Assembly (NCBI GenBank): GCA_014654775.1
Contig: JACVZW010000036.1
Coordinates: forward strand, 1 to 55,656
Length of the DNA: 55,656 nucleotides
From: Paracoccaceae bacterium
GTDB taxonomy: Bacteria; Pseudomonadota; Alphaproteobacteria; Rhodobacterales; Rhodobacteraceae
Direction of reading: 5' to 3'
Part shown: positions 9,211 to 55,429 of the stretch, piece by piece
How the letters are laid out: each line of letters opens with the position of its first letter
Position numbering within the stretch: the stretch's first letter is position 1
Notes under the pieces: generated by a model
What the model saw: the letters and a program-made list of their open reading frames with translations, nothing else
Databases searched by the model: none
Told to the model about the DNA's origin: nothing
Made by a program: the position numbers and the translations under genes

Positions 9211-9298
9211 CAATCATTCCTGCCGAATCGTGCATCTTTTCAGTGGATTACCGCAATCCTAGAAGTTCGGGCAATGAAATTGCTGCGGCCGATTTGGT

Positions 9299-12931: not shown

Positions 12932-15900
12932 TCACGCAAGGGAGAGGGGCAGCAGGCTCTCCAGCTTGGCGACAAACTCGCTGATACGGGCCGGAGCAAG
13001 CAGGCTTGCGTGGGTGCCGGGAAGTGTCGTGAGCCGGGTTGGGCCGACCGCCTGCCAAGCGGCAAGCATTGTGGCGACTGTCTTGGCATCATGTTCATCG
13101 GCAAGGATCAGATCAACCGGAACGGGCCGGACTGGGCGCGGGCCATAGGCCAGATGAGCGCGGGTATTGGCGCTGAAGAGGCCCACCATCTGGTGCAGGC
13201 GGTCAAGGCCGACATCCTGCGGCACGAGACCTGCCTGCACGAGCGCGTCACGGACCGCCGCCATGCGCCCGGCCGTGGAAAGCGGCAGGAGCCGGGCCCT
13301 TTCGTCGTCTATTGCCTCGCCTGCATAGTCGGCACCCGTCCGCAATAACCCTGCAAGAAGATCAAGGTCGTCCCAGCTGTCGAGTTGATCCTTGCCTACG
13401 TAGAAGGGCAAGGCATCGACGGCGATCAGCCGTTCGACCGTTTGGCCCAGACCGATCAGGTCCTGAGCGATCTGAAGCGCGACCTTGCCGCCCAACGAAT
13501 GACCGATGAGGAGGTAGGGACCTTCGGGCTGCACCTGGCGGATCAGTGGAAGATATGCCTCGGCCATGTCCTCGATCCGTGAGAAGGGCGCGCTGTGGCC
13601 ATCGGTGGCAGGGGACTGCAGCACATAGACTGGTCTATCCCCGGTCAGGGCGCGGGCGAGGTGGTGGAAATAAAGACCGTGCCCGCCTGACCCGGGGAAA
13701 CAGAACAGTGGCGTTTCCGTGCCCGTTGCACGCAGAGGCACCAGCATCGTGCCCTTTCCACCCGTTGCATTCTGATCGCGCAGCAGAGTGGCCTGCATTT
13801 CAATCGTGCCATTGCGAAAGATTTGGTCGAGTGACAGAGCGAGGCCGAAACGCCGTTCGACCTCGGTGGCCAGTCGCACGGCAAGCAGGGACTGCCCGCC
13901 GAGGTCGAAGAAGTTCTCGGTCACGCCGGGGGTTCCGGGCAGCGAGAGCACAAGTTGCCAGAGCTCGGCCAGATTCTGTTCGACCAGATCGCGAGGGGGG
14001 ACATAGCTGGCCGAGGGCCGAGACAGCTGACGTGTGGCGGCTGTCAGGGCAGCGCGGTCGATCTTGCCGTTGGCCGAGAGGGGCAAGGCAGGCCAGAGCA
14101 CGACCTGATCGGGAACCATGTAATCAGGCAGCTTTTGCCGGACGGCGGATCTGATCTGCTCGTCAAGCGGCGGGGCGGCCTCTGGTTCTTCCGGCCATGC
14201 GCCGGCTTCGGCGACGCGGCCACCGACGACGATATGAAGCAGGGTCTGATCGTCCTCCAACCGGAAAGCGGGCCGGACCGCATCGAAGTCCATGCCGCCA
14301 AGGGCGCAAAGGCCAAGCTCCAGCGCCGGTGCTGTTTCCTGCAAGAGCTGCGCGAGATAGCCTGCCTCCAAGAGGGCGAACTTTTCGGCGAGGTTGGTGC
14401 CGTAGACTGGGTGGATGGCTGCGGGCCGCGAGATCAGCAGGATGGCAAACCCAGCGCTGTCGGCAATGCGCCGGTTGAAGCCGTGATCAGGCCCCCAGAC
14501 CGCGCCGGGAACTGTCAGCTTGGGAGACAGACTGCGCAGCTGGTGCCCGGACGGGTCATACCAGTAGAGGCCTGCCTCCAGCCCGTCGACTGCGCCGGGC
14601 TTGACAACGAGGTAGACCTGGACCGGGTAGAGATTTCCCGCCGAAGGATAGCTCCGACGGGTAAGGCCGCCTTCGAGCTCGATCGTCGCGAGGGGGGCGA
14701 GAAGATTGCCAAGGGCTTTGACGGGAACCGGGGAGGAGAGAAAGCGCCTTCGGCTTTGGCGGGAAAGCCAGTGTTCCGGCTCGATCTCTGGCCGGTCAAG
14801 GCCGATGGCGGGAAGAGCGGTCCGGTCGGGGCGGAGTCCGGGCTGACCCAGCTTGAAATTCGCCTGATCGGCCTTGGCCGAGGCCGGTTCGCCGACCACA
14901 TGCGCGACCAGACGGTCGCCACCTTCGGCCAGCACGATGGCAGAGCTGATGCCGGGCAGCGCATTCAAGGCGGCACTGATGTCGCCAAGTTCGATGCGAT
15001 GGCCGCGGATCTTGACCTGAGCATCGCGGCGACCCAGGAACTCGATCTCTCCGTTCGGGAGGTAACGGCCGAAATCGCCGGTTCGATAGATGCGGTTGCC
15101 GCTGCGCGGATCGGTGACGAAGCTTGCTTCTGTCTGGGCCGCATCGCCAAAATACCCCATGGCGACGCCGATACCGCCGATGCACAGCTCGCCCGGGACA
15201 AGGATCGGTACGGGGGCGCCGTGGTGGTTGCGGATGTGATAGCTCTGGTTCGCAAGGGGCAGGCCATAGGGAACCGAGGTCCAGTCCGGGTCGATGGTGC
15301 CGATCTCGTGCCAGTTCGACCAGATCGACGCTTCGGTCGCCCCGCCCATTGCGATCTGCCGAGCCGCGGGCCAGAGCGCGCGAATGCGAGGCGGAAGGGT
15401 CAGGGGAATCCAGTCGCCGCTTAGCATGACGAGGCGCAGATCCGGTGGCGGTGCGGCACCGCTGGAGAGATGGTCGGTCAGCATCTGCATGAGCGCGGGA
15501 ACCGTGTTCCAGACAGTCACGCGGTTTTCCCGCCCGAGATCGGCCCAGTGGCCGGGTTCCAGCCTTAGGGATGGGTCTGGCAGAACGAGCGCGCCTCCGG
15601 CGCCCAGGACGCCGAAGATATCCCAGACCGACAGATCGAAATGCAGGACGGAAAGCGCCAGAACCCGGTCGCGGGCAGAGATGTCGAACCGTGCGTTGAT
15701 GTCGAGAACGGTATTGCGGGCGCCACGATGGTCGATCATCACGCCTTTCGGTACGCCGGTCGAACCGGACGTGAAGATGACATAGGCAAGATCCGTGGGT
15801 GCGAGCGGCGCGGGATCCGGATCATGGGTTGGCAGGCTCGCAAGCGCGTCGCCGTCAATGATGACAAGCCGGGCCCTGGTATTGCCTGCCTGGGCGGCGA

Positions 15901-18900
15901 ACCTGTCGCGCGTCAGGATCAGGCGCGCGGAAAGGCGTTGCAGGATTTGGCCGATGCGCTCGGCCGGTTGGTCTGGATCGACGGGGACATAAGCGCCGCC
16001 CGCTATGAGGATGCCAAGAACGGCGGCGATCTGGTCGGGGGATTTCTCGATCAGGACCACCACAGGTTCGGCCTTGCGGATCCCTTGGTCGCGCAGCGCA
16101 TGCGCGATCCTGTTGGCCTGTGCCCGAAGCGCGCCATGGCTGAGCGCGCCGCCCTGCCAGAGGATTGCCTGGCTGTCGGGCGCGTCATGTGCGACCCGAA
16201 GCCAGCCTTCATGCAGAAGGCCCTGACTGAAATCGGTCTCGGTCGCATTGGCCTTGCCGATCAGCGCCCACTGGTCGGGCGGGGGCAGGCGTCCGGCGTT
16301 CATGTCCTTCCAGGCGGCATCGGTCTCGGCCAGGGAGGTCAGCTGCTCGGTGTAGGCGGCGAACATCGCGTCAAGCAAGCCATCGGGAAAGACATCGTCC
16401 AGCGCATCCCAATCGACTTGCAGTGCGCCTTGCCGTTCCGAGACCTTGTGATCAAGCCATACCTGCGAGGTCTGAGTGATGGAATAGACGACCTCGCCCA
16501 TCGGTGCGCCAGAGGCGGACTGCGCCGCAAGGCCAAGGGTCGAGGTGAAGACGATCGGCATTGCCGCCCGTGGCACACCGCCCGAGTTCTGGCGAGCAAG
16601 TTCGCGCAGGACACGGACACCGTTGACGCGGGCATGTTCCAGGTCACGCCACAACTGCCCCTGTAGCCGTTTTGCCCGGTCGAGGAAGCGGTCGATGGGC
16701 CGGTTGTCGACTTCAAGCAAGATCAGCGAGGTGAAATCGCCGATCACTCGGTTTAGGTCGGGATGCACGGGCTGGCGGTTGAAGAGGGTGAGGTTGAGCG
16801 CAAAATGCGGCTCGTCCGACCAATAGGCCAGCACATCGGCAAAGGCTGCAAGGAGCACACCTGAAGGGGTAAGCCCAAGCCGCGCGGCGCGGCCCTTCAG
16901 CGCTGACCACTGTGCGGCGGGCAGCGTGAACGCGCGGCGCCTGAACTCTGGCGGCTTGTGACTGCCCCCCCGGCGGCGCAGGGGCAGGGCTGGGGCGGCA
17001 GGAAACGCGGGCAGGCGATCGGTCCAGTATGCAAGGGAACTGGCGTATGCTTCGCCCGCGCGCGCCGTGGTTTCTGCAAGCACATAGTCGCGGAAGGAGA
17101 GGCCGATGGGTGGCAGTTCAGTTTCAGGACGGGCGTACAGTGTGAAGAGCTCACCCAAAAGGATGCGCAGGCTGTGGGCGTCTGCCCAGAGCGCGTCGAT
17201 GCTGAAGAAGATGCGTGTCACGTCGCCGGGCAGCGTTGCGGCCCGGATGTCGAAAAGCGGCCCCGTCGTTGCATCAAGAATCTGGTGCGACATGTCCTGC
17301 CGGATGCGGGCAAGGCGTTCGTCGGTACCGCTTGCAGCGTCGATCAGCTGGATGGTGTAGGGGGCGTCGTCTGGGAGAATCCGTTGTTGGCCGCTTTCAG
17401 GCAGAACGACCATTCGCAGCATGTCATGGCGCGAGACCAGGGCCCGCCAGGCCGCCTCAAAGCGCGGCAGGTCAAGCGACTGGCAGTCAACCTCGATATA
17501 GCCGTGCGTCGCGATGTTGCCGAGATCGAAGGCACTGCTGCGGCCAAGCCAGTAGGCTTCCTGGATTTCGGTCATCGGGAAAGGCGAAAAGCGCTGGTCC
17601 GGGTCGGGGTGAATCTGGAATTCGGCCGCTTCCGGCGCGGCCCCCGGTCTCCGGTCGGCCTCGATCCGGGCGGCGAACTGATAAAGCTGCGGCGCCTCGA
17701 ACAGGGCGTGGACGGGCAGCCGCAGGGCAAAGACGTCGCGGATACGGGCAATGACCCTGGTGGCCAGAAGGGAATGGCCACCGAGCAGGAAGAAATCGTC
17801 TTCGGGACCGATGGGGCGATCGGAGGCGATGCCAAGTGCAGCGCGCCAGATTTCGGCGAGGAGTTGCTCGACCTCGGTCAGGGGGCGCGACATTACCGTC
17901 TCGGGCGCACGGTCAAGCGCCATCAGCTGCAGGGCCGCCAGATCGGCCTTGCCGTTGCGGGTCAGGGGAATGCGGCGGACCGGAACCAGATCAGAGGGAA
18001 CCATGTAAGCGGGAAGTGAGGCCGAGCAGAACTCACGCACAGTGGCTGCCCAGACCGCAGGGGTCATCTGCGGTGCAGGTGGGGTCGCCTGGCGATGGTC
18101 CATCTCGGGTCGGCGGGCATAGAGATTGACGAGCGCCACGGCATCGCCGCCGCCGAAAGCCTTTTCGTGGACGACGGTAAAGCCGCGCGCGGCAAGGTCC
18201 TTTGCCAGCGCCTGAACCCGTCCTTCGATGTCGTGGACTTCGACAACGATCTGCCGGATCAGCGGCCAGTGTTCGTCCTCCAGCCCGGCGAAGACGGCCA
18301 TTTCCGCCTTTTCGACGTCGATCTTCAGCAAGTCGATGCGGGTGATACCCTGGGCCCGGATTACAGAGGACAACGTCTCGATCCGGGCGGGCACCTCGAC
18401 CGATTGCATCCGCCAGGCGATGGCATCGTCCTGCCCCCCACCCTGGCTTTCGGCAAAGCTTGCCACGGACTGGCGCGCTTCGGCTTCGGCCACGTCCTGT
18501 CCGGACACGATGGTCAAGCGGGGGAAATGCCGCATTTGCACCTGGCCAGGGGCGCCTCCAAGACCAAGATTGTGGGCCTGCCCGCGAAGCCCGTGGAGAT
18601 CGAAGTTCTGCTGCAATATGGCGTAGACAGGGGCGATCGGCTCAAAAGCGTGTACTGTCAGGTCGAAGCCAGCCTCCCGCGCGAAGAATAAGGCGGCCAT
18701 GCCGATATTGGCACCGACGTCGAAGACGACATCTCCGGGGCAGAGCGTGATCCCGTGCCGCAGATAGGACCGGTCGCGGAAGATCTCGTCATAAAGAAAC
18801 CGCGTCTCGTTCAGGTTCAGATGTGCAACCCTCGTGCCATCGGGAAGATCGGTGGTTGCGCCGTCAAAAGGCAGGCGTCCAAGAACGCCCGGGGCGGATC

Positions 18901-21640
18901 TCGCATCGGGGACGATCCAAGCCACCAGACGCCGCGCGCCGCTGGTGCTGTCTTCCGCAGTCGAGACGATGCAATTGGCCACTCCCGGCGCCAGTCGCAG
19001 GGCGGCGGCGATCTCGCCCGTCTCGATCCGGTAACCGCGGATCTTGACCTGGTCATCGCCGCGTCCGCAGTAGTCCAGATCGATCGTCGCGCCGGTGTGG
19101 TCCAGAACTTGCCGCGCGATGTCACCGCTTTTGTAAAGACGCCCGAAGACCGGGTGATCCACGAACCGCTCGGCTGTCAGCGTGGGACGGTTGAGATAGC
19201 CCTGCGCGACGCCTGCGCCCGCCACGTGAAGCTCACCCGGCAGGCCGGGCAAGACGGCATTGCCGGCGGCGTCCAGCAGCAGGAGCTGAAGGTCGTCGAT
19301 TGGCACTCCGACCAGGCTGTGGGGCCGGTCGCAGTCGGCAGCGGTGACCCGCCGATACGTGACATGGACAGTGGTTTCGGTGATGCCGTACATGTTCACA
19401 AGCACGGGCCGGGTATCGCCGTGCCTGGCGAACCAGGGCCGCAGCATCGCGAAATCCAGGGCCTCGCCGCCAAAGATCACCCAGCGCAACCCCAAGGGTG
19501 GCAGCCCTTCGGTTGTTTCGTGCTGCACCAGCTGGCCAAAGGCCGAAGGGGTCTGGTTCAAAACGGTCACGCCCTGATCCGCAAGCATCTGGCGAAACTC
19601 CGGCACCGAGCGGCACAGAAGTGCAGGCGGCAGGACCAGCCGCCCGCCGTGGAGGAGGCAGCCAAAAATCTCCCACACCGAAAAGTCGAAAGCCGCAGAG
19701 TGGAACAGCACCCAGACGTCGGCCGGGCCGAAGTGAAATTGCGAGGCCGTCCGGGTCAGGAGCCGGTCGACGTTCCGGTGGCTGACAAGAACACCCTTGG
19801 GCTTTCCGGTCGAGCCGGAGGTGTAGATCACATAGGCCGGGTCGTCCGGCGTGGTGGCAACGTTCGGGGGATCGTCCGAAACGGTGCCGTCAGGCATGAG
19901 AAGTTTGCAGCCGCCAAGGTCAATGCCCGACATCTGGTCGGGATAGGAGATCAGGAGCGGCGTTGCCGCGTCTTGCAGGATCATGGCAATCCGGTCCGGC
20001 GGGCTGGTCGGATCAAGCGGGACATAAGCGCCCCCGGCCTTCAGGATTGCAATGATGGCGATGATCAGCTCGGGTCCCGGTGGTAGGCAGAGGCCGACAA
20101 GAGTTCCCGAGCGGCAGCCTTCGGCGAGAAGCCGGTGAGCAAGGCCATTGGCGCGGGCGTCGAGTTGGCCGAAGCTGATGCCCTTGCAGCTTTGCCCGCC
20201 ATGGAAGGCGAGCGGGGTCAGCGCAATAGCGTCGGGCTTACGAAGGGTTATGTCCCTCAGGCGGTGATGCAGGCAGTCAGCCTGAGCGGGCAGCAGCGTC
20301 GCGGGGGCAGGCAAGGGGGCCAGTGGAAGGTTAAGCGATGTCGCCGATGGATGGGCGACCATTGCCTGAAGGATGGCAACCAGCATCTCGCCTAGACGGT
20401 GGGCGACGGGGCTTGCGATGCCCTTGCCGTGATAAAGCCGCAAGCCGATACGCTCGACACCGGGCAGAACCGCGATGGCGAGCGGGTAGTTGGTGTTTTC
20501 GACAATCTCCAACGTTCGGACGCGGGGCGCCCCGGCAATGCTTGCGCCAAGGTTTGCGTCCGAGACGGGAAAGTTCTCGAAGACGAGAATGGTGTCGAAA
20601 AGAGCGCGCGTTTCAATCTTCGCGGCGCCTTGAACCTCGGCAAGGCTTGAATAGGCAAAGGCGTCCTGAGCTTGGGCCTGTTGCATCAGCCCTTGCAACC
20701 ATTCGGCCAGCGGCTGGTCAGTCAGGTCGACCCGCATCGGCAGTGTGTTGATGAAAAGGCCGACCATGGTCTCGACTCCCGGCAAATCCGCCGGACGGCC
20801 AGAAACGGTGGCACCGAAGACAATGCTGTCCTGGCGGCAGGCGCGGGAGAGGAGGATCGCCAGCGCACCTTGAAACAGGGTATTCAGCGTCAGGCGGTGG
20901 TCGCGGACGAAATCGCCGAGGGACCTGGCGAGGCCTGCATCGATTTCAAGATCGGCCGGGCCCTTGCCTTCGGGGCCCCAGACTACCGGCAGCGATCCCG
21001 ACAGCAGGGTTGGCGCGTCGATATCGCCCAGCCGCTCTTCCCAGTAGCGTCTGGCGGCCTGCCGGTCCTGCTGGCTGATCCAGGCAAGATGGTCGCGGTA
21101 CTGACGCACCGGAGGCAGAATGGCCGTTTCCCCCTTCAGCGCAGCATTGTAGCAGGCGACCAGTTCGCGCACGAGAATGGGGACGCACCAACCATCCAGA
21201 AGAAGGTGGTGATGGGTCCAGACAAAGACGTGGCGATCGGCCGCCAACCGGATGAGCCGCAGCCGCATCAGCGGTGCCTGCTCGAAGCGGAAGCCTTCGC
21301 GACGGAGGGCGTCGCGCAGAGTGCCAAGCTTGGCCTCCTGCTGCGAAGTCTCACAGTCGCTCCAGTCCAGAAGCTGCCAGTCAAGCTCGACCGACTTGCG
21401 AACGACCTGAACCGGTGCGTCAAGACCTTCCCAGTGAAACGACGTGCGCAGGACGGTGTGACGCGAGGTCAACTGCGACCAGGCCGACCGGAAGCTGTCA
21501 GGATCAAAGGAACCGTCGAAAGAATAGGCAAACTGTTCGACATAGAGACCCGCTTGCGGATCAGCGGCAAGGCATTCGAAGAGGATGCCCTGCTGCATTG
21601 GCGACAGCGGATAGATGTCCTGGACATTTTCCATCTTCAT
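12932..21640 (-). CDS. NRPS, C-A(Thr)-FkbM MT-T-Cy-A(Cys)-Ox-T-TE, terminal modules
   Basis: A 2902-residue synthetase that adds the last two residues and releases the product. Module 1: condensation (HHLLLDG near 145, D-donor type, fitting the upstream E domain); adenylation (TSGSTGKPKG near 605) with pocket DFWNIGMVH, the Thr code; a FkbM-type methyltransferase (FDVGANIG near 977, spanning about 950-1170) inserted between A8 and A9; NGKAD near 1232; carrier LGGHS near 1290. Module 2: cyclization domain with intact DALWADAHS near 1483; adenylation (TSGSTGVPKG near 1960) with pocket DLWNMSMIW, close to Cys; an FMN-dependent oxidase (YPSAGNLYPVQ near 2333) inserted in the same place; carrier LGGQS near 2583; thioesterase GHSLGG near 2713. 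Expected output: O-methylated Thr followed by a thiazole. The start directly precedes the condensation domain and overlaps the upstream stop by ATGA. Confidence 0.97.
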   Translation of the reverse strand: MKMENVQDIYPLSPMQQGILFECLAADPQAGLYVEQFAYSFDGSFDPDSFRSAWSQLTSRHTVLRTSFHWEGLDAPVQVVRKSVELDWQLLDWSDCETSQQEAKLGTLRDALRREGFRFEQAPLMRLRLIRLAADRHVFVWTHHHLLLDGWCVPILVRELVACYNAALKGETAILPPVRQYRDHLAWISQQDRQAARRYWEERLGDIDAPTLLSGSLPVVWGPEGKGPADLEIDAGLARSLGDFVRDHRLTLNTLFQGALAILLSRACRQDSIVFGATVSGRPADLPGVETMVGLFINTLPMRVDLTDQPLAEWLQGLMQQAQAQDAFAYSSLAEVQGAAKIETRALFDTILVFENFPVSDANLGASIAGAPRVRTLEIVENTNYPLAIAVLPGVERIGLRLYHGKGIASPVAHRLGEMLVAILQAMVAHPSATSLNLPLAPLPAPATLLPAQADCLHHRLRDITLRKPDAIALTPLAFHGGQSCKGISFGQLDARANGLAHRLLAEGCRSGTLVGLCLPPGPELIIAIIAILKAGGAYVPLDPTSPPDRIAMILQDAATPLLISYPDQMSGIDLGGCKLLMPDGTVSDDPPNVATTPDDPAYVIYTSGSTGKPKGVLVSHRNVDRLLTRTASQFHFGPADVWVLFHSAAFDFSVWEIFGCLLHGGRLVLPPALLCRSVPEFRQMLADQGVTVLNQTPSAFGQLVQHETTEGLPPLGLRWVIFGGEALDFAMLRPWFARHGDTRPVLVNMYGITETTVHVTYRRVTAADCDRPHSLVGVPIDDLQLLLLDAAGNAVLPGLPGELHVAGAGVAQGYLNRPTLTAERFVDHPVFGRLYKSGDIARQVLDHTGATIDLDYCGRGDDQVKIRGYRIETGEIAAALRLAPGVANCIVSTAEDSTSGARRLVAWIVPDARSAPGVLGRLPFDGATTDLPDGTRVAHLNLNETRFLYDEIFRDRSYLRHGITLCPGDVVFDVGANIGMAALFFAREAGFDLTVHAFEPIAPVYAILQQNFDLHGLRGQAHNLGLGGAPGQVQMRHFPRLTIVSGQDVAEAEARQSVASFAESQGGGQDDAIAWRMQSVEVPARIETLSSVIRAQGITRIDLLKIDVEKAEMAVFAGLEDEHWPLIRQIVVEVHDIEGRVQALAKDLAARGFTVVHEKAFGGGDAVALVNLYARRPEMDHRQATPPAPQMTPAVWAATVREFCSASLPAYMVPSDLVPVRRIPLTRNGKADLAALQLMALDRAPETVMSRPLTEVEQLLAEIWRAALGIASDRPIGPEDDFFLLGGHSLLATRVIARIRDVFALRLPVHALFEAPQLYQFAARIEADRRPGAAPEAAEFQIHPDPDQRFSPFPMTEIQEAYWLGRSSAFDLGNIATHGYIEVDCQSLDLPRFEAAWRALVSRHDMLRMVVLPESGQQRILPDDAPYTIQLIDAASGTDERLARIRQDMSHQILDATTGPLFDIRAATLPGDVTRIFFSIDALWADAHSLRILLGELFTLYARPETELPPIGLSFRDYVLAETTARAGEAYASSLAYWTDRLPAFPAAPALPLRRRGGSHKPPEFRRRAFTLPAAQWSALKGRAARLGLTPSGVLLAAFADVLAYWSDEPHFALNLTLFNRQPVHPDLNRVIGDFTSLILLEVDNRPIDRFLDRAKRLQGQLWRDLEHARVNGVRVLRELARQNSGGVPRAAMPIVFTSTLGLAAQSASGAPMGEVVYSITQTSQVWLDHKVSERQGALQVDWDALDDVFPDGLLDAMFAAYTEQLTSLAETDAAWKDMNAGRLPPPDQWALIGKANATETDFSQGLLHEGWLRVAHDAPDSQAILWQGGALSHGALRAQANRIAHALRDQGIRKAEPVVVLIEKSPDQIAAVLGILIAGGAYVPVDPDQPAERIGQILQRLSARLILTRDRFAAQAGNTRARLVIIDGDALASLPTHDPDPAPLAPTDLAYVIFTSGSTGVPKGVMIDHRGARNTVLDINARFDISARDRVLALSVLHFDLSVWDIFGVLGAGGALVLPDPSLRLEPGHWADLGRENRVTVWNTVPALMQMLTDHLSSGAAPPPDLRLVMLSGDWIPLTLPPRIRALWPAARQIAMGGATEASIWSNWHEIGTIDPDWTSVPYGLPLANQSYHIRNHHGAPVPILVPGELCIGGIGVAMGYFGDAAQTEASFVTDPRSGNRIYRTGDFGRYLPNGEIEFLGRRDAQVKIRGHRIELGDISAALNALPGISSAIVLAEGGDRLVAHVVGEPASAKADQANFKLGQPGLRPDRTALPAIGLDRPEIEPEHWLSRQSRRRFLSSPVPVKALGNLLAPLATIELEGGLTRRSYPSAGNLYPVQVYLVVKPGAVDGLEAGLYWYDPSGHQLRSLSPKLTVPGAVWGPDHGFNRRIADSAGFAILLISRPAAIHPVYGTNLAEKFALLEAGYLAQLLQETAPALELGLCALGGMDFDAVRPAFRLEDDQTLLHIVVGGRVAEAGAWPEEPEAAPPLDEQIRSAVRQKLPDYMVPDQVVLWPALPLSANGKIDRAALTAATRQLSRPSASYVPPRDLVEQNLAELWQLVLSLPGTPGVTENFFDLGGQSLLAVRLATEVERRFGLALSLDQIFRNGTIEMQATLLRDQNATGGKGTMLVPLRATGTETPLFCFPGSGGHGLYFHHLARALTGDRPVYVLQSPATDGHSAPFSRIEDMAEAYLPLIRQVQPEGPYLLIGHSLGGKVALQIAQDLIGLGQTVERLIAVDALPFYVGKDQLDSWDDLDLLAGLLRTGADYAGEAIDDERARLLPLSTAGRMAAVRDALVQAGLVPQDVGLDRLHQMVGLFSANTRAHLAYGPRPVRPVPVDLILADEHDAKTVATMLAAWQAVGPTRLTTLPGTHASLLAPARISEFVAKLESLLPLSLA

Positions 21641-47118: not shown

Positions 47119-50100
47119 AAGACGAACTCGACTTCTGTCGCCGCCGCAGGCCCGGCAAGCGCGGCCTTGGCGGCATCGAGTTCTTGTGACAGCTGCATAA
47201 GCGGCGTTTCCATCATCGTTCCAAGGCTGAGCCTGATGCCGAAATCGTCATTGATTCGGCCGCGCAAGTCGATGCACATCAGGCTGTCGAGACCCAGTTC
47301 CGGCAGCGTCCTTCCGGTATCCAGGGCTGCCGATCCGCCCAAAAGCCTCCCGATCTGCTGTTTCAGGAAATCCACAGCCGCACCGGTTGCACCGTTGGTT
47401 GCGGCGGCCGGTGCAGGGTTAGGGGCGGGGGTCCTTGGTTGCGTCGGCTCTTGCTTCCAGTCGCCCGGCAGAACGCCCACTTGGCCAAGATCGGTGGCCA
47501 TAAGCCTGAACAGAAGCGCAATGCCGTCATCAGGGCGGATCGCAGCTGCATCGCGCGCACTGCCCACCATCCCGACCTCGGCCCATCTGCCCCAGTTCAC
47601 CGACAGTGCCGGAAAGCCGCGGCGCCGCCGCTTCAAGGCAAGGCCATCCAGCGCGGAATTGCCAGCGGCATAGGCGCCCTGACCGGGCAGACCAAACCAG
47701 GCGGCGGCCGAGGAGAACAGGACGAAATGCCGGAGTTCGGGCACCTCGGCGCAAAGCCGGTCAAGAACCTCGCCCCCGCGCAGCTTTGCTGACATGTTGG
47801 CAAGAAGGTCGCCTTCGGTCTCAAGAAGGGCGGGCTTCAGGATACCGGCCAGATGGAACACACCATGCAGCGGGTGCCGTGCAGTGATGTCGCGGACAAC
47901 TCGGCCCATCGCATCAAGGTCGGTAACATCGGCGAGGTGTACGGTCACGTCTTGTTCGGCCTGTAGCTTCGCCAATTCGGCGCTATCGCGCAGGGTCCGA
48001 CCAACGAGCGCGACATGACGGGCTCCCTGGGCAATCAATCCATGGGCAAGGCGGAGTCCGATGCCACCCATTCCTCCAGTGATCAGATGGACGCCTTCGT
48101 GGTCAAAGCACACCGGCTCTGGCAAAGCGAGCCGAAGCGGGGCAAGGACGGGCGACACTGAGCCATCGGAAGTCAGGACCAGTTCGTCGGGCAGCAGCGG
48201 GTCGACAAGTGCGGTGGCGATCCGATCCGCCGGGGTGTCGGCCGTTACCGAGAGGATGCGGCCGGCCCGGTCGGGCAATTCGTGCCGCAAGACCCGCATA
48301 AGTCCCCAAAGCGCCGCAGTGCCAGCGGTCTCGTCCATCACGACATGAAGCTTTCCACCCGGCCCGGTCGTCGCAAGCTTGCGGAGGCGTTCGGCATCGT
48401 CTGCGTCCCGGGCGATCAGGACGGTGTCGGAGGAAGGTTCGTCCGCGCCCGTCCCAAAGGCCCGAAGCGCGGCTGTCAGACCGAACTCATCCTCTCCAAC
48501 GACACGCAATGCGCTGCTGGAGGGGCCTTCGGGCATCTGGGCGACAAAGACCGTTTGAAGGCCACCCGGTGTCGGGATTTCAAGATCCGCCGCGCTGGCA
48601 CTGGCGAACCCGGCCGCCTCAAGCGCGGTCAGCCACTGTGAGCGGGACAGAAGCGGGTAGTCCGGGCGAAGATCGTGGTCGGCAAAGCGCCACCAGCCCT
48701 TGAGCAGCCCGAAGGTCAGGTCCACCGGTACGGTCGGCTCATTGACCTCAAGCAGGATCAGATAACCGCCGGGTCGCAACAGGCGGCGAGCATTGGCCAG
48801 CGTCTCAGTGATCGAGACGGTTGCGTGCAGGACGTTTGAGGCGATCACCAGATCGAAATCCGCTTTCAGCCCTTGCGGGCCGGGGTCCTTCTCGACGTCG
48901 AAAAGCCGGAACTCCATGAAAGAGGCGTCGGCAAAGCTTTCGCGCGCGGCTTTCAGGAACAGGTTGGAGATGTCGGTGAAGACGTAGGTGCTGCGATCTG
49001 GCGCCAGATGCGGTAGCACGTGGTGGGTGGTAGCACCGGTGCCCGCACCGATTTCAAGAACGCGCAACACATAATCCGGGGGCGCGGCCGAGGCGATCTG
49101 GGCCACAAGCCGCCCGACGAGCGTGTTCAGCACCGAGAACCCGGCGCTGTCGCGATAAAGTGCGGTTGCAGCCGAAAGATCGCCACCGGGAAACAAGGCC
49201 TCCAACGGATCGGTCTTGCCAGAGAGAATGCTTCCCAGACGACTGCCCGCAGCTTCCAGAAGCGCCACTTCGCTGATCACCGCTTCGCCATGTTTGGCCC
49301 GGATGCGCCGGGCCTGCTCGGTTGAGGCCAAGGCGTCTGGTAGCAACACCCCTTGCCAGAGCCCGGGCCCTGCATCCAGCAGCCTGCCGTGGCGGACCAT
49401 CAGTTGCAGCAAACGGTCGAGCGCCTTGTCAAACTCGGGCGCAAGCGACAGGCTGGCGACGATCTTGCCGCGGTCTATGACCTGGCCTGCGGCCGGAATT
49501 GCCCCCGCGCCGTGCAGGGCTTCGGCCAGATAGGCAAGCGCCAGTTCCTCAAGCTCTTCGGTACGCTGCAGATCGCGTGGGCCAGCAATGGCGGCGATGC
49601 GCGCCTGAAACGCGTCATCCTTGATAGCCGGACCGGCAAGATAATCGGCGGGAGAGGGGCGCTTGCGCCAGTGTGAGGTACTTTCGTTCGGCAGCCACCG
49701 AACCTCGACCAGCGCCTGGGCCAGATCATCGCCATGGGTCAGGCGGCGTAGTTCGAAGCCTTCGGCAACCAGTACCGGACGGCCCACGGCATCTCGCACC
49801 TCCAGATCGACGATCTGGCCGCCTTCGGGCCGACGGCGCATGGTTCCGAGCAGGGGAAAGGCCTCGGGCAAGCGGTGAAGGGCGAACCGCTGCAGCGCAA
49901 CCGGGACAAAGGTTTCATGCGACGCACCAAACGACAGAAGCGTCAGGGCGGGCTGCAGAAGCGAGTCCACCAGTCCGGGATGTAGGCCCAAGGCCGTATC
50001 GACATGGAGCCCGTCCGGCGGCGCAAGCACGTAACGGGCGCAATCCGCATTGAATTCGACAGAGCGCAGCCAGGAAAAGGACGGGCCAAGCGCGATCTGC

Positions 50101-53100
50101 CGGGCCGCAAGCTGGTGCCGCAGCTCATCGCCGGTGACACGCCCTGCCAAAGTGTCTGGCGCTGCTTGGCCAATCGCCGGGTCGGCCCCGGGATCGGGCG
50201 CCATATCTGCCGAAACGTGGCGGCTGAAACCGTCCTGATCGAGGGCATAACTGACGATCTCGGCCCCGGACCCCGACAGGCGTAGTTGAACCCGGCGGGG
50301 CCTGTCGGCAAACAGCGGCCCGACGAACCGGATATCCGAAAAGGCGGGCGTTGCGGTTCCGGCAAGGCTTGCCGCAGCGACCAGCATGGCCAGATGTGCC
50401 GCACCCGCCACCAGCGGACGGCCTTGCACCACATGGTCTGTCACCCAGTCTGGCAAGGGGTCGGTCAGGTCGGTCTCGAAAACCGCCATCTCAAGACCCG
50501 GCAACGCCACGGCCCGATGCACCAAGGGATGCAGGCGCGGGGTTTCGGATATGCGTTCAGCCGGTGCCGGGGGTTGAAGCCAGTAGCGGGTCTTCTTGAA
50601 CGGATAGGTCGGAAGCTCTACCCGCTGACAATTCCGTCCTTCGAAGAGTGGCGCGAAGTTCAGGTCGTGTCCGGCTTCGAACAGCCGGGCGGTTGCCGTC
50701 AGAATCTGCCGCAGGTCAGAGCGACCCTTGCGCAGCGTCTCGACTGTGTCTCCCCCAAGGGTGCGGACAAAACCGGACAGTACCGGATGCGGGCCGATTT
50801 CCAGAACCCGAGTTAGCCCCTCGGCGCGCAAAGCCTGAACTCCGCCACGGAAGTCCACCGGCTCCAACATGTGGCGCAGCCAGTAATCGGGCGAGGCAAA
50901 GAGGCCGCTTTCGAACTTGCCAGTCAGGTTTGACACCAGCGGGATGTCCGGTTCAGCCAACGAAACCCAAGCAAATGCCTGACGGAACGCCTCTGCCGCG
51001 CCCGACATCTGCTGCGAATGGAAGGCGTGCGAGGTCGCGACGTGGCGGCAGTCGATCCCTGCGGTCTCCAGTGCGGCCTTCAAGGCGGCGATCTGGTCGC
51101 TTGGGCCGGAAATGACGGTGTTCTCGGGGCTGTTGCGGGCAGCAACCTGCAACTCCCGGTGGGCTGACAGGTCCACGTCGCCCTGCATCACGGCCAGCAT
51201 GGCCCCGTCACCCGGCTGGGCGGCCATCAACCGGCCGCGCGCGACGACAAGGCGGAGGGCATCCTCAACTGAGAAGACGCCAGCCAAGGTCGCGGCAACA
51301 TATTCGCCGAGGCTGTGGCCGATCAGGGCAGCAGGGATGAGCCCGCAGGCCATCCAGAAGCGGGCGAGGGCATATTCGACGGCAAAGAGCACCGGCTGGG
51401 TCACCGCCGTGTTGGCGAGCGTTGCATCATCCCCGCGCAGAAGATCCAGAAGTGATGTGTCCAGCAGATCGGCCAGCAGATTGGCGCAGTGATCCAGTTC
51501 GCGGCGGAAGGCGGGCTGATCGCGATAGAGCCCCAGCGCCATACCGGAGTATTGTGACCCCTGCCCGGTAAAGGCAAAGACAAGCCGCGGCGAGGGCTCG
51601 GCGACCACCCCCTGTAGATTTATCAAAGCCTCTGGCAAGGAGGCTGCCGTGTCGATAACCAATGCCTTGCGCGTCTGAAACTGGTGCCGCCCCGTACAGA
51701 GGGTAAAGGCGACATCTGCCAGATTTTCCGATGTTGCCGCATGGTCGCGCAGCCGGGCTACGGCCCGATCGAAATCTTCCGCGTCGCGCGCGGACAGGAC
51801 CATGAGCTCGGCCTCGGCAGGGGCGGGATGCAAGGTTCGTGGCGGGGCTTCCTCGACGACCAGATGGGCATTCGTGCCACCTATTCCCAGCGAGTTGACG
51901 CTTGCCCGCCGGGGTCCTTCGGTCAGGGGCCAGTCCATGGTTCTGGTGGGGATGAAGAAGGGTGAACTGGCGAAGTCGATCTGCGGATTTGGCCGCGAGA
52001 AATGCAGGTTGGCAGGCACTTTGCCGGACTGAACCGCCAGCGCGGCCTTCATGAACCCTGCCATCCCGGAACTGATCTGCAGATGCCCAACATTGGTCTT
52101 CACCGCACCCAAAGCGCAGAACTGCTTGGCATCTGTGTCCTGCCGGATCGCCTGAGACAGGCTTTCCACCTCGATCGGGTCGCCAATCAGGGTTCCGGTG
52201 CCATGGGCCTCAACCAGACCAATGGTGGAAGGAGAAACGTCGGCCGCTTCAAACGCGGCTAGCGTCACATCGGTTTCGCCGTCCTGCGAGGGGGCCATGT
52301 ATCCGACCTTGCGCCGCCCATCATTGTTCACCGCCGACCCCTTGATGACGGCAATCACCCTGTCGCCATCGGCAAGCGCCTCGTCCAGTGGCTTCAAGAG
52401 CACGGTCCCGACACCGGATCCAAAGATCGTTCCACTGGCCTCAGCGTCAAAGGCGCGGCATCGGCCATCCTGCGAGACGATCATCCCTTCACGGTAAAGA
52501 TGGCCGGCCATCTCGGGTGCCTTGACGGAAGCGGTGCCGGCCAGGGCCATCCGGCAATCACCGGCGAGGATCGCCTTGATCGCCTCATGGATCACCACCA
52601 ACCCGGAAGAGCAGGCTGTCTGCAGGTTTACTGAGGGACCTCGCAGGTCCAGTTTGTAGCTGACCCGCGTTGCCAGGTAATCCTTGTCATTGGCCACCAT
52701 GGCCTGAAAACCGGCCATGGAATCAAGGGTGAAGGCGTCCTGTCCTGCCTTGGGATCCAGCTCGGACAGGTTCGGCAGCACATTGTTGACCAGATAGGTG
52801 TTCATGGCGGCGCCTGCGTAGACGCCTACCGATCTGTCCAGCGCCAGCGGATCATATCCTGCCGCTTCAAAGGCCTCCCAGGCCACTTCCAGAAACAGCC
52901 GATGCTGTGGGTCCATCACGGCGGCGTCGCGATCGGAATAGCCGAAGAAACCGGCGTCGAAGGCGGCAGCATCCGCAAGCCTTGGCGTGGCCTTCACGTA
53001 GTCGGGATGTTCCACAAGCGACCGGCTCACCCCGGCCAGGATCGCCTCGCTGGCCGAAAACCGGGAGATCGAATCCACGCCGCCCAGAAGATTGGCCCAG

Positions 53101-55073
53101 AACGCCTGGGGCGTGTTGGCCCCGGGAAACCTGCAGGCCATCCCGATAACGGCAATGTCGCGGTTCTGCGGCTTTGGACGGGGCGTGATACGAGCGGATT
53201 TCCGTGCCGGATCGACCCTGGTGCCGTTTTCCCGGCGGGCCAGGTACGCCGCCTGCGTCTCCACCGTCGGATGCAGGAACAGATCGGAAAGAGGAAAACT
53301 GCCGAAGCGTTCCGCAAGACGGACCTGCATCCGAGCCAGCAGAATGGACTGTCCGCCAAGATCGAAGAAGTTCTCGCTGCGGCCGATCCTGTCGGTCTGC
53401 AGGATCTCTTGCCAGATCGATAGCACGTCGCTTTCGATGGCGCTTCGCGGCCTTGCGGGCGGGGCTGGCGAATTGGTGCCTTCCACAACGAAATCGTTCA
53501 GGCCGCCGGCGAGATAAGCCTCTTTCAGCTTTCGCCGCTGGATCTTGCCGATCGAGGTCCGCGGCAGGTCTTCAACCGCAACACAGATGGTCACCGACCC
53601 TTGCGCGCCAAACTCGGCTGCAATCCGGCGCCGGATCTCGGTTGCAACAGAGGAAGTGTCATGGCTTTGCCCGGACTTGCAGAACACCAGACCCAGACGC
53701 TCGGTCGCGCCGTGCGCATCATGGACCGGGAAGGCACAGCTGTGGTTGGCAAGAACGCCCTCGACGCCCTCGGCGCATTTTTCGATGAGATGAAACGGGA
53801 TGTTGCGACCATTGAGGACGATCTCCTCCTTGCTGCGTCCGGTCACATGAAGCTCGCCGTCCTGCAGATAGGCCAAATCCCCGGTCCGGAACCAGCCATC
53901 GCTGGTAAAGGCAGCAGCGTTCGCGGCGGGATTGCGGAAGTATCCGCTGGTAATTGACGGCCCAAGCATCTCAAGCTGGCCGACCGTTCCCTCCGGCAAT
54001 GGCGCGCCAGTATCGTCGGTGACACGCAGACTTGCCCCAGGGATCGCTCTGCCAAGCGAGATGAACGCGGGATCATTTTCCAGGACTGCTCGGGTGAGCC
54101 CGCTTGACCAGGTGATGCCCGAACAGCTTTCCGCCATTCCGAAGGCTGGTCGCAAGGCGCCATCGCGCAACCCAAGCGGCATGAGCGCGTCGAGAAAATC
54201 GAGGACGGTGCGCGACTTGACCTGTTCGCCCGCGTTGACGAGAAAGCGCAGTTTCGACAAGTCGATCCCCGTCGGCTCATGCGCCTTGATCGCATCGCTG
54301 ACCATCGAGAAGGCGAAGTTCGGCGCCCAAGAGACGGCTGTTTCATGCCGTGTCATCAGGCGCAGCCAAAGCAGAGGGTCCGCCAGAATCCGACTGGTCT
54401 TCACATGCACTTGCGATACGCCGAGATAGGCTGGAAGGACCCCAAGAAAGACGGCCGCTCCGGGGTGTTCCGGCGGCATCCAGTTCAAGCAATGGTCACT
54501 GTCCGAAAAGCCATTCATCTCGATGGTCCCGCGCACCATCGACAGGATGTTCCGGTTCGTCAGAAGAATGCCTTTCGGGAGACCCGTGCTGCCCGAGGTG
54601 AAGGGAAACAACGCTGGGTCGTCCGCCCGGATCGCTGGCAAGACCGCTCTGGGCCCGGCGCGGAGGCACCCGTCCGCAGGCAGGACACGGTCAGGCCTGG
54701 TGGCCTCGCCAATCTGCAACAGACCGCCATCACAAATGATCAGCGGCTCGTCGCAGAGGTCCCAGACCGTGCGGATCAACGCAACCCGCGCTGGCGATCC
54801 GGCACCCGGCGCAACAGGTGAGGCGACAATGCCGCCCAGAAAGCAGGCCCAGAGAAGGATGAAGAATGCTTCGGGATCTTCGACCGACAGGACGACGGTA
54901 TCACCCGGTTTCAGTCCGTTCTGCTGAAGAACGCCGAGCGCCGAGGTCGCGCGGGAGTAGAGCTCTGCGAAGGTGAGAGTGGAAACGTCGTCCTTTTCGC
55001 CAAGAAGTGCTGCTGCCAAACTGTCCTGCTCCCTGCGGAGAGACAAAACTTCGGCAATACTGAGTGCGCCCAT
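47115..55073 (-). CDS. Loading and first PKS module, AL-ACP-KS-AT-DH-cMT-KR-ACP
   Basis: A 2652-residue protein that starts the assembly line. An acyl-AMP ligase (residues 1-520; TSGSTGLPKG near 158, SIGKIQRRKL near 497) loads a carboxylic acid on ACP1 (LGGQS near 573). Then KS (TACSSG near 817, HGTGT near 956, NVGH near 994); AT (GHSLGEY near 1253, HAFH near 1350, malonyl type); dehydratase-like domain (HVVQGRPLVA near 1550, where the usual Pro is Ala; DSLLQ near 1706); C-methyltransferase (VLEIGAGTG near 2007); KR (TGGMGGIG near 2331; SS...GAY..GN catalytic residues); ACP2 (LGLDS near 2594). No enoylreductase. Output: starter plus one C2 unit with alpha-methyl and beta-hydroxyl or a double bond. 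The tail TEVEFVL may dock the 1339-aa protein. The starter cannot be read from the sequence; no starter-biosynthesis gene is present. Confidence 0.97.
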   Translation of the reverse strand: MGALSIAEVLSLRREQDSLAAALLGEKDDVSTLTFAELYSRATSALGVLQQNGLKPGDTVVLSVEDPEAFFILLWACFLGGIVASPVAPGAGSPARVALIRTVWDLCDEPLIICDGGLLQIGEATRPDRVLPADGCLRAGPRAVLPAIRADDPALFPFTSGSTGLPKGILLTNRNILSMVRGTIEMNGFSDSDHCLNWMPPEHPGAAVFLGVLPAYLGVSQVHVKTSRILADPLLWLRLMTRHETAVSWAPNFAFSMVSDAIKAHEPTGIDLSKLRFLVNAGEQVKSRTVLDFLDALMPLGLRDGALRPAFGMAESCSGITWSSGLTRAVLENDPAFISLGRAIPGASLRVTDDTGAPLPEGTVGQLEMLGPSITSGYFRNPAANAAAFTSDGWFRTGDLAYLQDGELHVTGRSKEEIVLNGRNIPFHLIEKCAEGVEGVLANHSCAFPVHDAHGATERLGLVFCKSGQSHDTSSVATEIRRRIAAEFGAQGSVTICVAVEDLPRTSIGKIQRRKLKEAYLAGGLNDFVVEGTNSPAPPARPRSAIESDVLSIWQEILQTDRIGRSENFFDLGGQSILLARMQVRLAERFGSFPLSDLFLHPTVETQAAYLARRENGTRVDPARKSARITPRPKPQNRDIAVIGMACRFPGANTPQAFWANLLGGVDSISRFSASEAILAGVSRSLVEHPDYVKATPRLADAAAFDAGFFGYSDRDAAVMDPQHRLFLEVAWEAFEAAGYDPLALDRSVGVYAGAAMNTYLVNNVLPNLSELDPKAGQDAFTLDSMAGFQAMVANDKDYLATRVSYKLDLRGPSVNLQTACSSGLVVIHEAIKAILAGDCRMALAGTASVKAPEMAGHLYREGMIVSQDGRCRAFDAEASGTIFGSGVGTVLLKPLDEALADGDRVIAVIKGSAVNNDGRRKVGYMAPSQDGETDVTLAAFEAADVSPSTIGLVEAHGTGTLIGDPIEVESLSQAIRQDTDAKQFCALGAVKTNVGHLQISSGMAGFMKAALAVQSGKVPANLHFSRPNPQIDFASSPFFIPTRTMDWPLTEGPRRASVNSLGIGGTNAHLVVEEAPPRTLHPAPAEAELMVLSARDAEDFDRAVARLRDHAATSENLADVAFTLCTGRHQFQTRKALVIDTAASLPEALINLQGVVAEPSPRLVFAFTGQGSQYSGMALGLYRDQPAFRRELDHCANLLADLLDTSLLDLLRGDDATLANTAVTQPVLFAVEYALARFWMACGLIPAALIGHSLGEYVAATLAGVFSVEDALRLVVARGRLMAAQPGDGAMLAVMQGDVDLSAHRELQVAARNSPENTVISGPSDQIAALKAALETAGIDCRHVATSHAFHSQQMSGAAEAFRQAFAWVSLAEPDIPLVSNLTGKFESGLFASPDYWLRHMLEPVDFRGGVQALRAEGLTRVLEIGPHPVLSGFVRTLGGDTVETLRKGRSDLRQILTATARLFEAGHDLNFAPLFEGRNCQRVELPTYPFKKTRYWLQPPAPAERISETPRLHPLVHRAVALPGLEMAVFETDLTDPLPDWVTDHVVQGRPLVAGAAHLAMLVAAASLAGTATPAFSDIRFVGPLFADRPRRVQLRLSGSGAEIVSYALDQDGFSRHVSADMAPDPGADPAIGQAAPDTLAGRVTGDELRHQLAARQIALGPSFSWLRSVEFNADCARYVLAPPDGLHVDTALGLHPGLVDSLLQPALTLLSFGASHETFVPVALQRFALHRLPEAFPLLGTMRRRPEGGQIVDLEVRDAVGRPVLVAEGFELRRLTHGDDLAQALVEVRWLPNESTSHWRKRPSPADYLAGPAIKDDAFQARIAAIAGPRDLQRTEELEELALAYLAEALHGAGAIPAAGQVIDRGKIVASLSLAPEFDKALDRLLQLMVRHGRLLDAGPGLWQGVLLPDALASTEQARRIRAKHGEAVISEVALLEAAGSRLGSILSGKTDPLEALFPGGDLSAATALYRDSAGFSVLNTLVGRLVAQIASAAPPDYVLRVLEIGAGTGATTHHVLPHLAPDRSTYVFTDISNLFLKAARESFADASFMEFRLFDVEKDPGPQGLKADFDLVIASNVLHATVSITETLANARRLLRPGGYLILLEVNEPTVPVDLTFGLLKGWWRFADHDLRPDYPLLSRSQWLTALEAAGFASASAADLEIPTPGGLQTVFVAQMPEGPSSSALRVVGEDEFGLTAALRAFGTGADEPSSDTVLIARDADDAERLRKLATTGPGGKLHVVMDETAGTAALWGLMRVLRHELPDRAGRILSVTADTPADRIATALVDPLLPDELVLTSDGSVSPVLAPLRLALPEPVCFDHEGVHLITGGMGGIGLRLAHGLIAQGARHVALVGRTLRDSAELAKLQAEQDVTVHLADVTDLDAMGRVVRDITARHPLHGVFHLAGILKPALLETEGDLLANMSAKLRGGEVLDRLCAEVPELRHFVLFSSAAAWFGLPGQGAYAAGNSALDGLALKRRRRGFPALSVNWGRWAEVGMVGSARDAAAIRPDDGIALLFRLMATDLGQVGVLPGDWKQEPTQPRTPAPNPAPAAATNGATGAAVDFLKQQIGRLLGGSAALDTGRTLPELGLDSLMCIDLRGRINDDFGIRLSLGTMMETPLMQLSQELDAAKAALAGPAAATEVEFVL

Positions 55074-55360: not shown

Positions 55361-55429
55361 GATGCTGTCCCATGGAATGGTGTAGCTGGCGCTGATCGTC
55401 ACCGTGATGCTTGGCGCGGGCCTGCTTGA

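What the first reader, a model, noticed from the sequence alone, without database searches (positions are those of the whole stretch)
12932..55073. Apparently undescribed hybrid PKS-NRPS line for a bis-thiazole, N-methylated, D-residue-containing peptide
Six giant genes form one minus-strand operon in which every gene overlaps the next at stop/start (five junctions). Domain order and pocket residues predict: acid starter, C2 with alpha-methyl, thiazole, beta-amino C2 unit, X, N-Me-Val/Ile, N-Me-D-Phe-like, D-Asp, Thr with a FkbM methylation, thiazole, TE release. Gene order, E domains followed by D-donor condensation domains, and a single terminal TE are all consistent with collinear assembly. 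I do not recognise a known compound with this order, although parts recall MycA/ItuA (aminotransferase module) and myxobacterial thiazole pathways. Absence of a match in memory is not proof of novelty.
Basis: partly seen in the sequence, partly recalled or inferred. Interest (0 to 1): 0.88.

Follow-up and report, generated by a model that had tools for sequence, protein, structure and literature searches.

The report
Two-thiazole peptide assembly line
Six giant bacterial genes appear to build an unidentified, probably ring-shaped peptide with two thiazoles; the same six-gene line sits in a distantly related bacterium beside the same three accessory genes.

Summary
Four additions.
(1) The starter domain is closest to McyG, the microcystin loader (PDB 4r0m, E 4.6e-122), so an aryl/phenylpropanoid-type acid is a better guess than a fatty acid.
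(2) The PKS module before the aminotransferase has no acyltransferase (AT); malonyl must arrive in trans, as FenF serves MycA, but the window holds no separate AT gene.
(3) Algicola sagamiensis carries the same six genes in order (35-44% overall identity) with matching predicted residues where both could be read, 9 of 9 pocket letters for the unassigned residue X, and an eroded AT relic.
(4) DUF697 protein, peptide-type ABC exporter and prohibitin-like SPFH protein flank both clusters. Of 29 further loci with this SPFH type, 13 have a PKS/NRPS within about 10 kb, against 0 of 19 around other Band_7 genes and 1 of 20 arbitrary regions.
The product is predicted, not shown. MIBiG could not be searched, so novelty of the compound is untested. 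I read the line as a new variant of the AMT-type PKS-NRPS; the cassette is the more original lead.

The parts
47115..55073 (-). NP1: starter ligase-T-KS-AT-DH-cMT-KR-T (2652 aa)
53514..55010 (-). NP1 starter acyl-adenylating domain, McyG-like
   Evidence: Pfam AMP-binding; best PDB match McyG 4r0m 4.6e-122
51999..53162 (-). NP1 ketosynthase
50766..51581 (-). NP1 acyltransferase, the only AT found on this contig (HAFH motif, malonyl type; motif meaning recalled)
49728..50531 (-). NP1 dehydratase, first motif altered (P to A)
48759..49058 (-). NP1 C-methyltransferase core
47577..48095 (-). NP1 ketoreductase
43099..47118 (-). NP2: TubC_N-Cy-A(Cys-like)-Ox-T, first thiazole module
45643..46890 (-). 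NP2 Cy domain; motif reads GLIVLDSFS, first Asp changed
   Evidence: Pfam Condensation; sequence; groups with the other Cy domains
43567..44097 (-). NP2 oxidase (nitroreductase fold) embedded in A
36356..43102 (-). NP3: KS-(no AT)-T-AMT-C-A(X)-T
41831..43090 (-). NP3 ketosynthase with active-site Cys and both His motifs
41183..41590 (-). NP3 stretch where an AT would sit: none detectable, post-AT linker motif YPFQRSRYW kept
39452..40609 (-). NP3 aminotransferase (AMT, class III, HemL-like), Lys motif TYGKILG
36833..38050 (-). NP3 adenylation domain, code DARHFSFMI (residue X)
31902..36374 (-). NP4: TubC_N-C-A(Val/Ile)-nMT-T
21637..31905 (-). NP5: TubC_N-C-A(Phe)-nMT-T-E-C-A(Asp)-T-E
26095..27387 (-). 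NP5 first epimerization domain
21724..22977 (-). NP5 second epimerization domain
12932..21640 (-). NP6: C-A(Thr)-FkbM-T-Cy-A(Cys)-Ox-T-TE
18197..18721 (-). NP6 FkbM-type methyltransferase embedded in A
14222..14764 (-). NP6 oxidase (nitroreductase/SagB-like)
12962..13711 (-). NP6 thioesterase, GHSLGG
11807..12925 (+). SPFH/Band_7 protein, prohibitin-like; 40% identical to the Algicola counterpart
10083..11810 (+). ABC exporter resembling the cyclic-peptide type (TIGR01194 278.7 bits, just under its cut-off 286.2)
9378..9869 (+). DUF697 protein, 35% identical to the Algicola counterpart
8524..9213 (-). type II thioesterase
7841..8527 (-). 4'-phosphopantetheinyl transferase

Best explanation
A working, plasmid- or island-borne, hybrid PKS-NRPS line. 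NP1 activates an aryl or short acid (McyG-like loader), adds one malonyl unit, C-methylates and reduces it (dehydration uncertain). NP2 adds Cys and makes thiazole 1. The NP3 ketosynthase adds a second C2 unit from malonyl that is loaded in trans onto its ACP (by the NP1 AT or by the cell's own malonyl transferase), and the AMT turns the beta-ketone into a beta-amine: a thiazolyl beta-amino acid. Then X, N-Me-Val/Ile, N-Me-D-Phe, D-Asp, (O-methyl-)Thr and thiazole 2 follow. The TE most likely closes a ring on the free beta-amine, as in iturin- and microcystin-type pathways (recalled). The ABC exporter with DUF697 and SPFH proteins exports the product or anchors and protects the machinery at the membrane. 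Shown here: gene and domain order, kept motifs, conservation of the whole design in Algicola, loss of the AT in both, recurrence of the trio. Inferred: every substrate, the trans loading, cyclization, export and the compound itself.
For: Domain order. Pocket letters shared with the Algicola orthologues at 35-44% overall identity: X 9 of 9, Thr 9 of 9, Val/Ile and Asp 8 of 9, Phe 7 of 9, terminal Cys 6 of 9 (the Algicola NP2 pocket was not read). Donor-stereochemistry tree. NP3 lacks an AT: no Pfam AT at E<=1 in NP3 or in Algicola A10; an AT profile from 62 sequences (NP1's among them) gives 362 bits on the NP1 AT, 11.2 on the Algicola relic, 0.9 on the best of 20 shuffles and no match on NP3. 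Distance from the KS HGTGT motif to the AMT motif is about 724 aa here and 838 in Algicola (read); in the 44 other loci where both motifs were found in one frame it is 870 or more, in 43 of them 983 or more (13 rows without the KS motif set aside, Algicola's L018 among them because its motif reads HGTAT). FenF loading MycA ACP2 is reported in PMC3039948 (passages). TubC_N docking domains on NP2, NP4 and NP5 fit the order. PPTase and TEII beside the operon.
Against: No metabolite data. The NP2 Cy motif has Gly for its first Asp, so thiazole 1 is less certain than thiazole 2. The DH motif is altered in both clusters. Pocket positions were read from motifs, not by antiSMASH. NP4_C is outside the D-donor clade, so X is probably L although Algicola has two Asp/Glu racemase genes beside its cluster. 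No dedicated trans-AT gene was found on the contig. The N-MT motif search found no hit in Algicola NP5.
Confidence: 0.75

Rival explanations
1. The AT-less KS module of NP3 is skipped or dead: the thiazolyl intermediate passes without elongation and no beta-amine is made, so the product is linear or closes elsewhere.
For: No AT in the module; the only AT match on the contig is that of NP1; no AT family among the nine Algicola flank ORFs scanned.
Against: KS Cys and His, ACP Ser and AMT Lys motifs are kept in both clusters, with HGTAT for HGTGT in Algicola; the KS is the best kept part of NP3 (52% identity to Algicola); AT-less KS-ACP-AMT with malonyl loaded by a separate protein has a reported precedent (PMC3039948 passages).
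Confidence: 0.12
2. The starter is a medium or long fatty acid and the product is an iturin-like lipopeptide with a thiazole next to the lipid.
For: NCBIfam ranks fatty acid CoA/AMP/ACP ligase models first for the NP1 loader, among the 25 of 101 shown, all far below their cut-offs.
Against: McyG is the closest solved relative by a wide margin (4.6e-122 against 1.3e-50 for the first fatty acyl-adenylate ligase), and by my reading its pocket letters largely match.
Confidence: 0.25
3. The TE hydrolyses and releases a linear acid instead of a ring.
For: TE sequence alone does not tell cyclization from hydrolysis; only the family and the GHSLGG motif are shown.
Against: A free beta-amine from the AMT and an exporter resembling the cyclic-peptide type favour a ring, by analogy only.
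Confidence: 0.25
4. The compound is already characterised and the cluster is a known MIBiG entry or a close homologue.
For: MIBiG and most subscription journals could not be searched.
Against: Paper searches, seen as listings only: six domain terms together, 0 papers; four of five terms, 1 paper, a Pseudanabaena genome-mining study; four of five terms, 25 papers of which 15 were listed, none evidently this line by title; Algicola sagamiensis with nonribosomal peptide, one listed paper holds both, on cyclodipeptide synthases (PMC5816076).
Confidence: 0.15

Closest known systems
Algicola sagamiensis DSM 14643 uncharacterised cluster (NZ_KB894507.1, G459:C17 19017-66572)
   Same: Six megasynthases in the same order, 35-44% overall identity, matching pocket letters, same AT loss, same DUF697-ABC-SPFH trio
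   Different: Trio lies upstream and codirectional; an Asp/Glu racemase gene overlaps the last NRPS gene and a second lies nearby; no counterpart of the PPTase or free TEII among the ORFs of the fetched stretch; larger AT relic
Mycosubtilin/iturin synthetase (MycA, ItuA with FenF, ItuD)
   Same: Acyl ligase start, AT-less KS-ACP-AMT before an NRPS module, malonyl loaded by a separate protein (PMC3039948 passages)
   Different: MycA loads fatty acids and has no thiazole module (recalled); here the KS acts on a thiazolyl intermediate, an AT relic in Algicola points to loss of a cis AT, and no FenF-like gene adjoins
Microcystin/nodularin type lines (McyG, McyE)
   Same: McyG-like loader; aminotransferase module leading into an NRPS module (recalled for McyE); X code begins DxRH, like recalled codes for acidic residues
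   Different: One complete PKS module and a thiazole instead of the Adda polyene; two N-methylations, D-Phe, Thr and terminal thiazole; not a microcystin
Epothilone and bleomycin type thiazole modules (EpoB, BlmIII oxidase domains named in PMC10127204 passages)
   Same: Cy-A-Ox-T thiazole formation with an FMN-dependent oxidase domain
   Different: Different surrounding line and product

Membership tests
Hybrid PKS-NRPS with in-line AMT domain (MycA type) | KS-ACP-AMT-C-A-T order with an intact class III aminotransferase | tested here: met
Hybrid PKS-NRPS with in-line AMT domain (MycA type) | AT-less KS module served by a separate malonyl transferase gene in the cluster | tested here: not met
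   AT absent from the module, but the only AT match on this contig is NP1's own; others in the genome are a second PKS (C74), C71 and one weak hit under the cut-off. None among nine Algicola flank ORFs
Microcystin/nodularin synthetase family | McyG-like loader | tested here: met
Microcystin/nodularin synthetase family | Several PKS modules building the Adda chain | tested here: not met
   One complete PKS module plus one AT-less module
Thiazole-forming NRPS module, NP6 | Cy DxxxxDxxS motif, Cys-type A pocket, embedded oxidase | tested here: met
   DALWADAHS, DLWNMSMIW, nitroreductase/SagB-type domain
Thiazole-forming NRPS module, NP2 | Cy DxxxxDxxS motif, Cys-type A pocket, embedded oxidase | tested here: inconclusive
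   A pocket and oxidase present; motif reads GLIVLDSFS, canonical in the Algicola counterpart
D-residue modules | E domain followed by a D-donor-type C domain | tested here: met
   Two of two E domains: NP5_C2 and NP6_C lie in the C-after-E clade
trans-AT polyketide synthases proper | Free-standing AT in the cluster serving AT-less modules | tested here: not met
   NP1 has a cis AT and no other AT lies on the contig; NP3 keeps the post-AT linker and Algicola an AT relic. KS descent was not tested by a tree
Known MIBiG cluster | Same domain order and product | not testable with these tools
   No MIBiG or antiSMASH access

The most novel reading that the evidence does not exclude
DUF697 protein, peptide-type ABC exporter and a distinct prohibitin-like SPFH protein form a dedicated cassette that travels with diverse PKS/NRPS lines in Proteobacteria, either building a membrane microdomain that couples the assembly line to its exporter or protecting the producer's membrane from the product. 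In this window it serves a new thiazolyl beta-amino-acid macrocycle made by a line whose second AT was lost and replaced by trans loading.
Probability: 0.4. Interest if true: 0.75.

Novelty: new variant of a known kind. Interest (0 to 1): 0.56.

Why it matters
The same predicted peptide in two distant bacteria, with 35-44% overall protein identity but nearly unchanged specificity pockets, suggests long selection for one product and gives two producers to grow. The AT lost in both, with a relic left in one, is a natural case of an assembly-line module that gave up its own loading enzyme. The recurring SPFH-exporter-DUF697 trio makes a standing idea testable by gene deletion: that peptide assembly lines sit in membrane microdomains with their exporters. 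A balhimycin study reported an SPFH paraslipin in proximity labelling with its ABC exporter and speculated so (PMC11960670, passage).

Tried and rejected
An orthologous cluster elsewhere: NP6 hit 1 of 19 genomes of the genus, the own one. In 394 genomes of the family the NP3 segment hit 20 at E<=1e-90, own genome included; the best other, G360, proved to be a different ligase-PKS-AMT pathway. Among 147 relatives of Algicola NP6 hit 2 at E<=1e-250, Algicola itself and G1191, a 5.8 kb contig with one ORF matching NP6 1205-2506, not shown to be the same line. Megablast of 25 kb of the megasynthase region against PLSDB found one 42-base match.

Naming X: of 43 A domains next to an AMT in other genomes that could be aligned (Algicola's two rows and two window rows aside; loci without the motifs dropped), none shares DARHFSFMI. 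The resemblance to recalled acidic-residue codes could not be confirmed: 0 papers for those strings. The closest solved A domains did not settle it. X is left open; its C-domain context argues for L.

Naming the host: not possible; plasmid matches point to Rhodobacteraceae-like plasmids. Circularity: no exact end overlap. Rfam and tRNA scans of the window and a promoter/terminator scan of 54800-55656 found nothing. Structure prediction was not used.

Limits of the survey: the 29 loci are not independent (three from one genus, two from another, two genomes with two loci each). The ABC link holds only in the window's class (15 of 19 loci; 0 of 10 in Algicola's class); DUF697 is 15 of 19 and 2 of 10, megasynthase 10 of 19 and 3 of 10. 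Several contigs are short, so absences are weak. Of the three other genomes in the family search, G133 has the whole trio, G033 has SPFH with two ABC genes and no DUF697, G225 is a 5.9 kb contig with SPFH alone. My DUF697 and ABC profiles were built from three sequences each; Pfam confirmed DUF697 only in the window and Algicola. The Band_7 control covers 19 of 46 other Band_7 matches in the 16 genomes, chosen by me.
Full report
WHAT IS THERE. Six open reading frames on the minus strand between 12932 and 55073 encode 2652, 1339, 2248, 1490, 3422 and 2902 aa without internal stops. Neighbours overlap by 4 bp at four junctions and 19 bp at NP3/NP4, where the stop also overlaps an ATG as TAATG. 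Pfam scans of 15 pieces give NP1 AL-T-KS-AT-DH-cMT-KR-T; NP2 TubC_N-Cy-A-Ox-T; NP3 KS-T-AMT-C-A-T; NP4 TubC_N-C-A-MT-T; NP5 TubC_N-C-A-MT-T-E-C-A-T-E; NP6 C-A-FkbM-T-Cy-A-Ox-T-TE. Both oxidase domains, both N-methyltransferases and the FkbM domain are embedded in adenylation domains.

PREDICTED BUILDING BLOCKS. Nine pocket positions were read from a MAFFT alignment with positions set by motif (numbering of GrsA recalled): NP2 DLFNISAVW (Cys-like), NP3 DARHFSFMI (no match known to me), NP4 DAFFLGGTF (Val/Ile), NP5 DSWTVAAVC (Phe) and DLTKVGHIG (Asp), NP6 DFWNIGMVH (Thr) and DLWNMSMIW (Cys). The residue assignments rest on recalled code tables. In a tree of 228 condensation-superfamily domains all 11 C domains that follow an E domain in the same protein (nine from other genomes, NP5_C2 and its Algicola counterpart) form a clade of 21 with support 0.999. 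The clade also holds NP6_C and its Algicola counterpart, whose E partner ends the preceding protein, and it excludes NP3_C, NP4_C and NP5_C1. So Phe and Asp are predicted D; X and Val/Ile are not.

WEAK POINTS IN THE MOTIFS. The NP2 Cy motif reads GLIVLDSFS, while its Algicola counterpart has DLIVLDSGS and NP6 has DALWADAHS. The DH motif HxxxGxxxxP has A for P in both clusters, and in Algicola H for G as well. The Algicola NP3 KS has HGTAT for HGTGT.

STARTER. The NP1 loader's best solved relative is McyG (4r0m, 4.6e-122), then a protein I recall as a keto-acid A domain (6ulx, 3.4e-85), then fatty acyl-adenylate ligases from 1.3e-50. A paper on microcystins says phenylpropanoids are activated and truncated by McyG and that its Val227 is thought critical (PMC11209926, passages). 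At what looks like that position Algicola has Val and the window Pro (my reading), so the exact acid may differ.

THE MODULE WITHOUT AN AT. NP3 runs from KS to ACP with no AT between: Pfam finds only KS-AT linker and KS-extension families there, and no AT in the Algicola stretch. The post-AT motif YPFQRSRYW is kept. In Algicola the same stretch is about 120 aa longer and still scores 11.2 bits (E 1.6e-4 among 26 sequences, search space set to 22) against a profile of 62 ATs. The NP1 AT, itself among the 62, scores 362; the best of 20 shuffles scores 0.9; NP3's stretch gives no match; and the GHSxGE motif is gone. In the 44 other loci where both motifs were found in one frame the KS-AMT distance is at least 870 aa (43 of 44 at least 983, 13 rows without the KS motif set aside); here it is about 724 and in Algicola 838 (read). 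L044, at 870 with no GHSxG, may be another case. Malonyl must come in trans. FenF loads malonyl onto MycA ACP2 (PMC3039948, passages), but the only AT match on this contig is that of NP1, and nine Algicola flank ORFs show none. Candidates are the NP1 AT and the other AT matches of the genome, on C74 (a second PKS) and C71.

THE SAME LINE IN ALGICOLA. A scan of one genome per species with part of NP3 ranked Algicola sagamiensis DSM 14643 first (capped list). Its contig carries all six genes in order: NP1 38%, NP2 44%, NP3 52% over the KS and 39% over most of the rest, NP4 38%, NP5 35%, NP6 42% identity. Pocket letters agree 9 of 9 for X and Thr, 8 of 9 for Val/Ile and Asp, 7 of 9 for Phe and 6 of 9 for the terminal Cys; the Algicola NP2 pocket was not picked up. 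FkbM, AMT, both E and both Cy motifs are present in Algicola; the N-MT motif was found in its NP4 but not in its NP5, which the alignment covers end to end. I did not run Pfam on the Algicola megasynthases. An Asp/Glu racemase gene overlaps the last gene by 4 bp and another lies upstream. The own genome shows one such match, outside the window.

THE FLANKING CASSETTE. Beside the operon lie DUF697, an ABC exporter (TIGR01194 278.7 bits, cut-off 286.2) and an SPFH/Band_7 protein whose PDB matches are prohibitins. All three have Algicola counterparts next to its cluster (35, 31 and 40% identity). The SPFH type is rare: 4 of 248 genomes of the family at E<=1e-15, 18 of 385 of the class and 11 of 369 of Algicola's class at E<=1e-40, the two producers included. 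G133, one of the four in the family, has the trio beside a different AMT-type PKS-NRPS with an NP1-like loader. I fetched up to about 10 kb on each side of the 29 further matches: ABC exporter 15, DUF697 17, PKS/NRPS megasynthase 13 of 29. Controls: 20 arbitrary regions of the same genomes 0, 0 and 1 (Fisher p 3e-3 for megasynthase); regions around 19 of 46 other Band_7 matches of 16 of those genomes 0, 0 and 0 (Fisher p 5e-4 for megasynthase, 8e-5 for ABC). Loci are not independent, several contigs are short, and in Algicola's class the ABC count is 0 of 10. Papers: none held has SPFH, 'nonribosomal peptide' and 'ABC transporter' together (the hyphenated spelling is not caught). A wider search, 191 papers of which 15 were listed, led to a balhimycin study that found an SPFH paraslipin near the exporter Tba and speculated on a membrane microdomain (PMC11960670, passages). 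A survey that sorts prokaryotic SPFH proteins into 12 subfamilies has no occurrence of polyketide, nonribosomal or DUF697 and says that one member, YqfA, is reported to give resistance to toxic peptides (PMC2636767, passages).

SETTING. The window is a whole contig of 55,656 bp. Its left part resembles Rhodobacteraceae plasmids (96 plasmid records, best Fuscovulum ytuae, 76% over 21% of the query). Its right end reads as part of an IS256-type transposase (my reading). None of 18 other genomes of the genus has NP6 at E<=1e-100. The cluster looks mobile.

VERDICT. The assembly line is real, open throughout and conserved in a distant bacterium. Its parts are known kinds, combined in an order I do not know from any compound. 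It is a new variant of the AMT-type PKS-NRPS. Whether the compound is new is untested. The flanking cassette is the more general and less expected lead.

Noticed in passing
window 66-1175 -, 1290-2192 +, 2189-2803 +, 3490-5676 +: Integrase, DUF1403, ScpB and RecD2-like helicase; the first three also stand together on several Rhodobacteraceae plasmids.
   Followed up: partly
window 7192-7701 -: Partial match to an ISKra4-family transposase, below the model's cut-off, apparently a remnant.
   Followed up: no
window 55597-55656: Contig end reads as the C-terminal part of an IS256-type transposase on the minus strand, so the contig probably breaks at an insertion element (my reading).
   Followed up: no
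window 5682-6140 -, 6122-6925 -: Two overlapping open frames without Pfam match.
   Followed up: no
L121 (G000:C74, about 20830): A second type I PKS in the same genome, open frame 1827 aa.
   Followed up: no
L131-L132 (G133:C59): Another AMT-type PKS-NRPS cluster with an NP1-like loader, an asparagine-synthase gene, TEII and the SPFH-ABC-DUF697 trio.
   Followed up: partly
L044: Alphaproteobacterial MAG with a KS-ACP-AMT module that may also lack an AT (KS-AMT 870 aa, no GHSxG).
   Followed up: no
L116 6661-7482 -, L118 16569-17339 +: Two Asp/Glu racemase genes flank the Algicola cluster, one overlapping its last NRPS gene; the window has no match to that family.
   Followed up: partly
L175, L188, L186, L191: Large PKS or PKS-NRPS genes close to the same SPFH type in other Proteobacteria; products unknown.
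   Followed up: no
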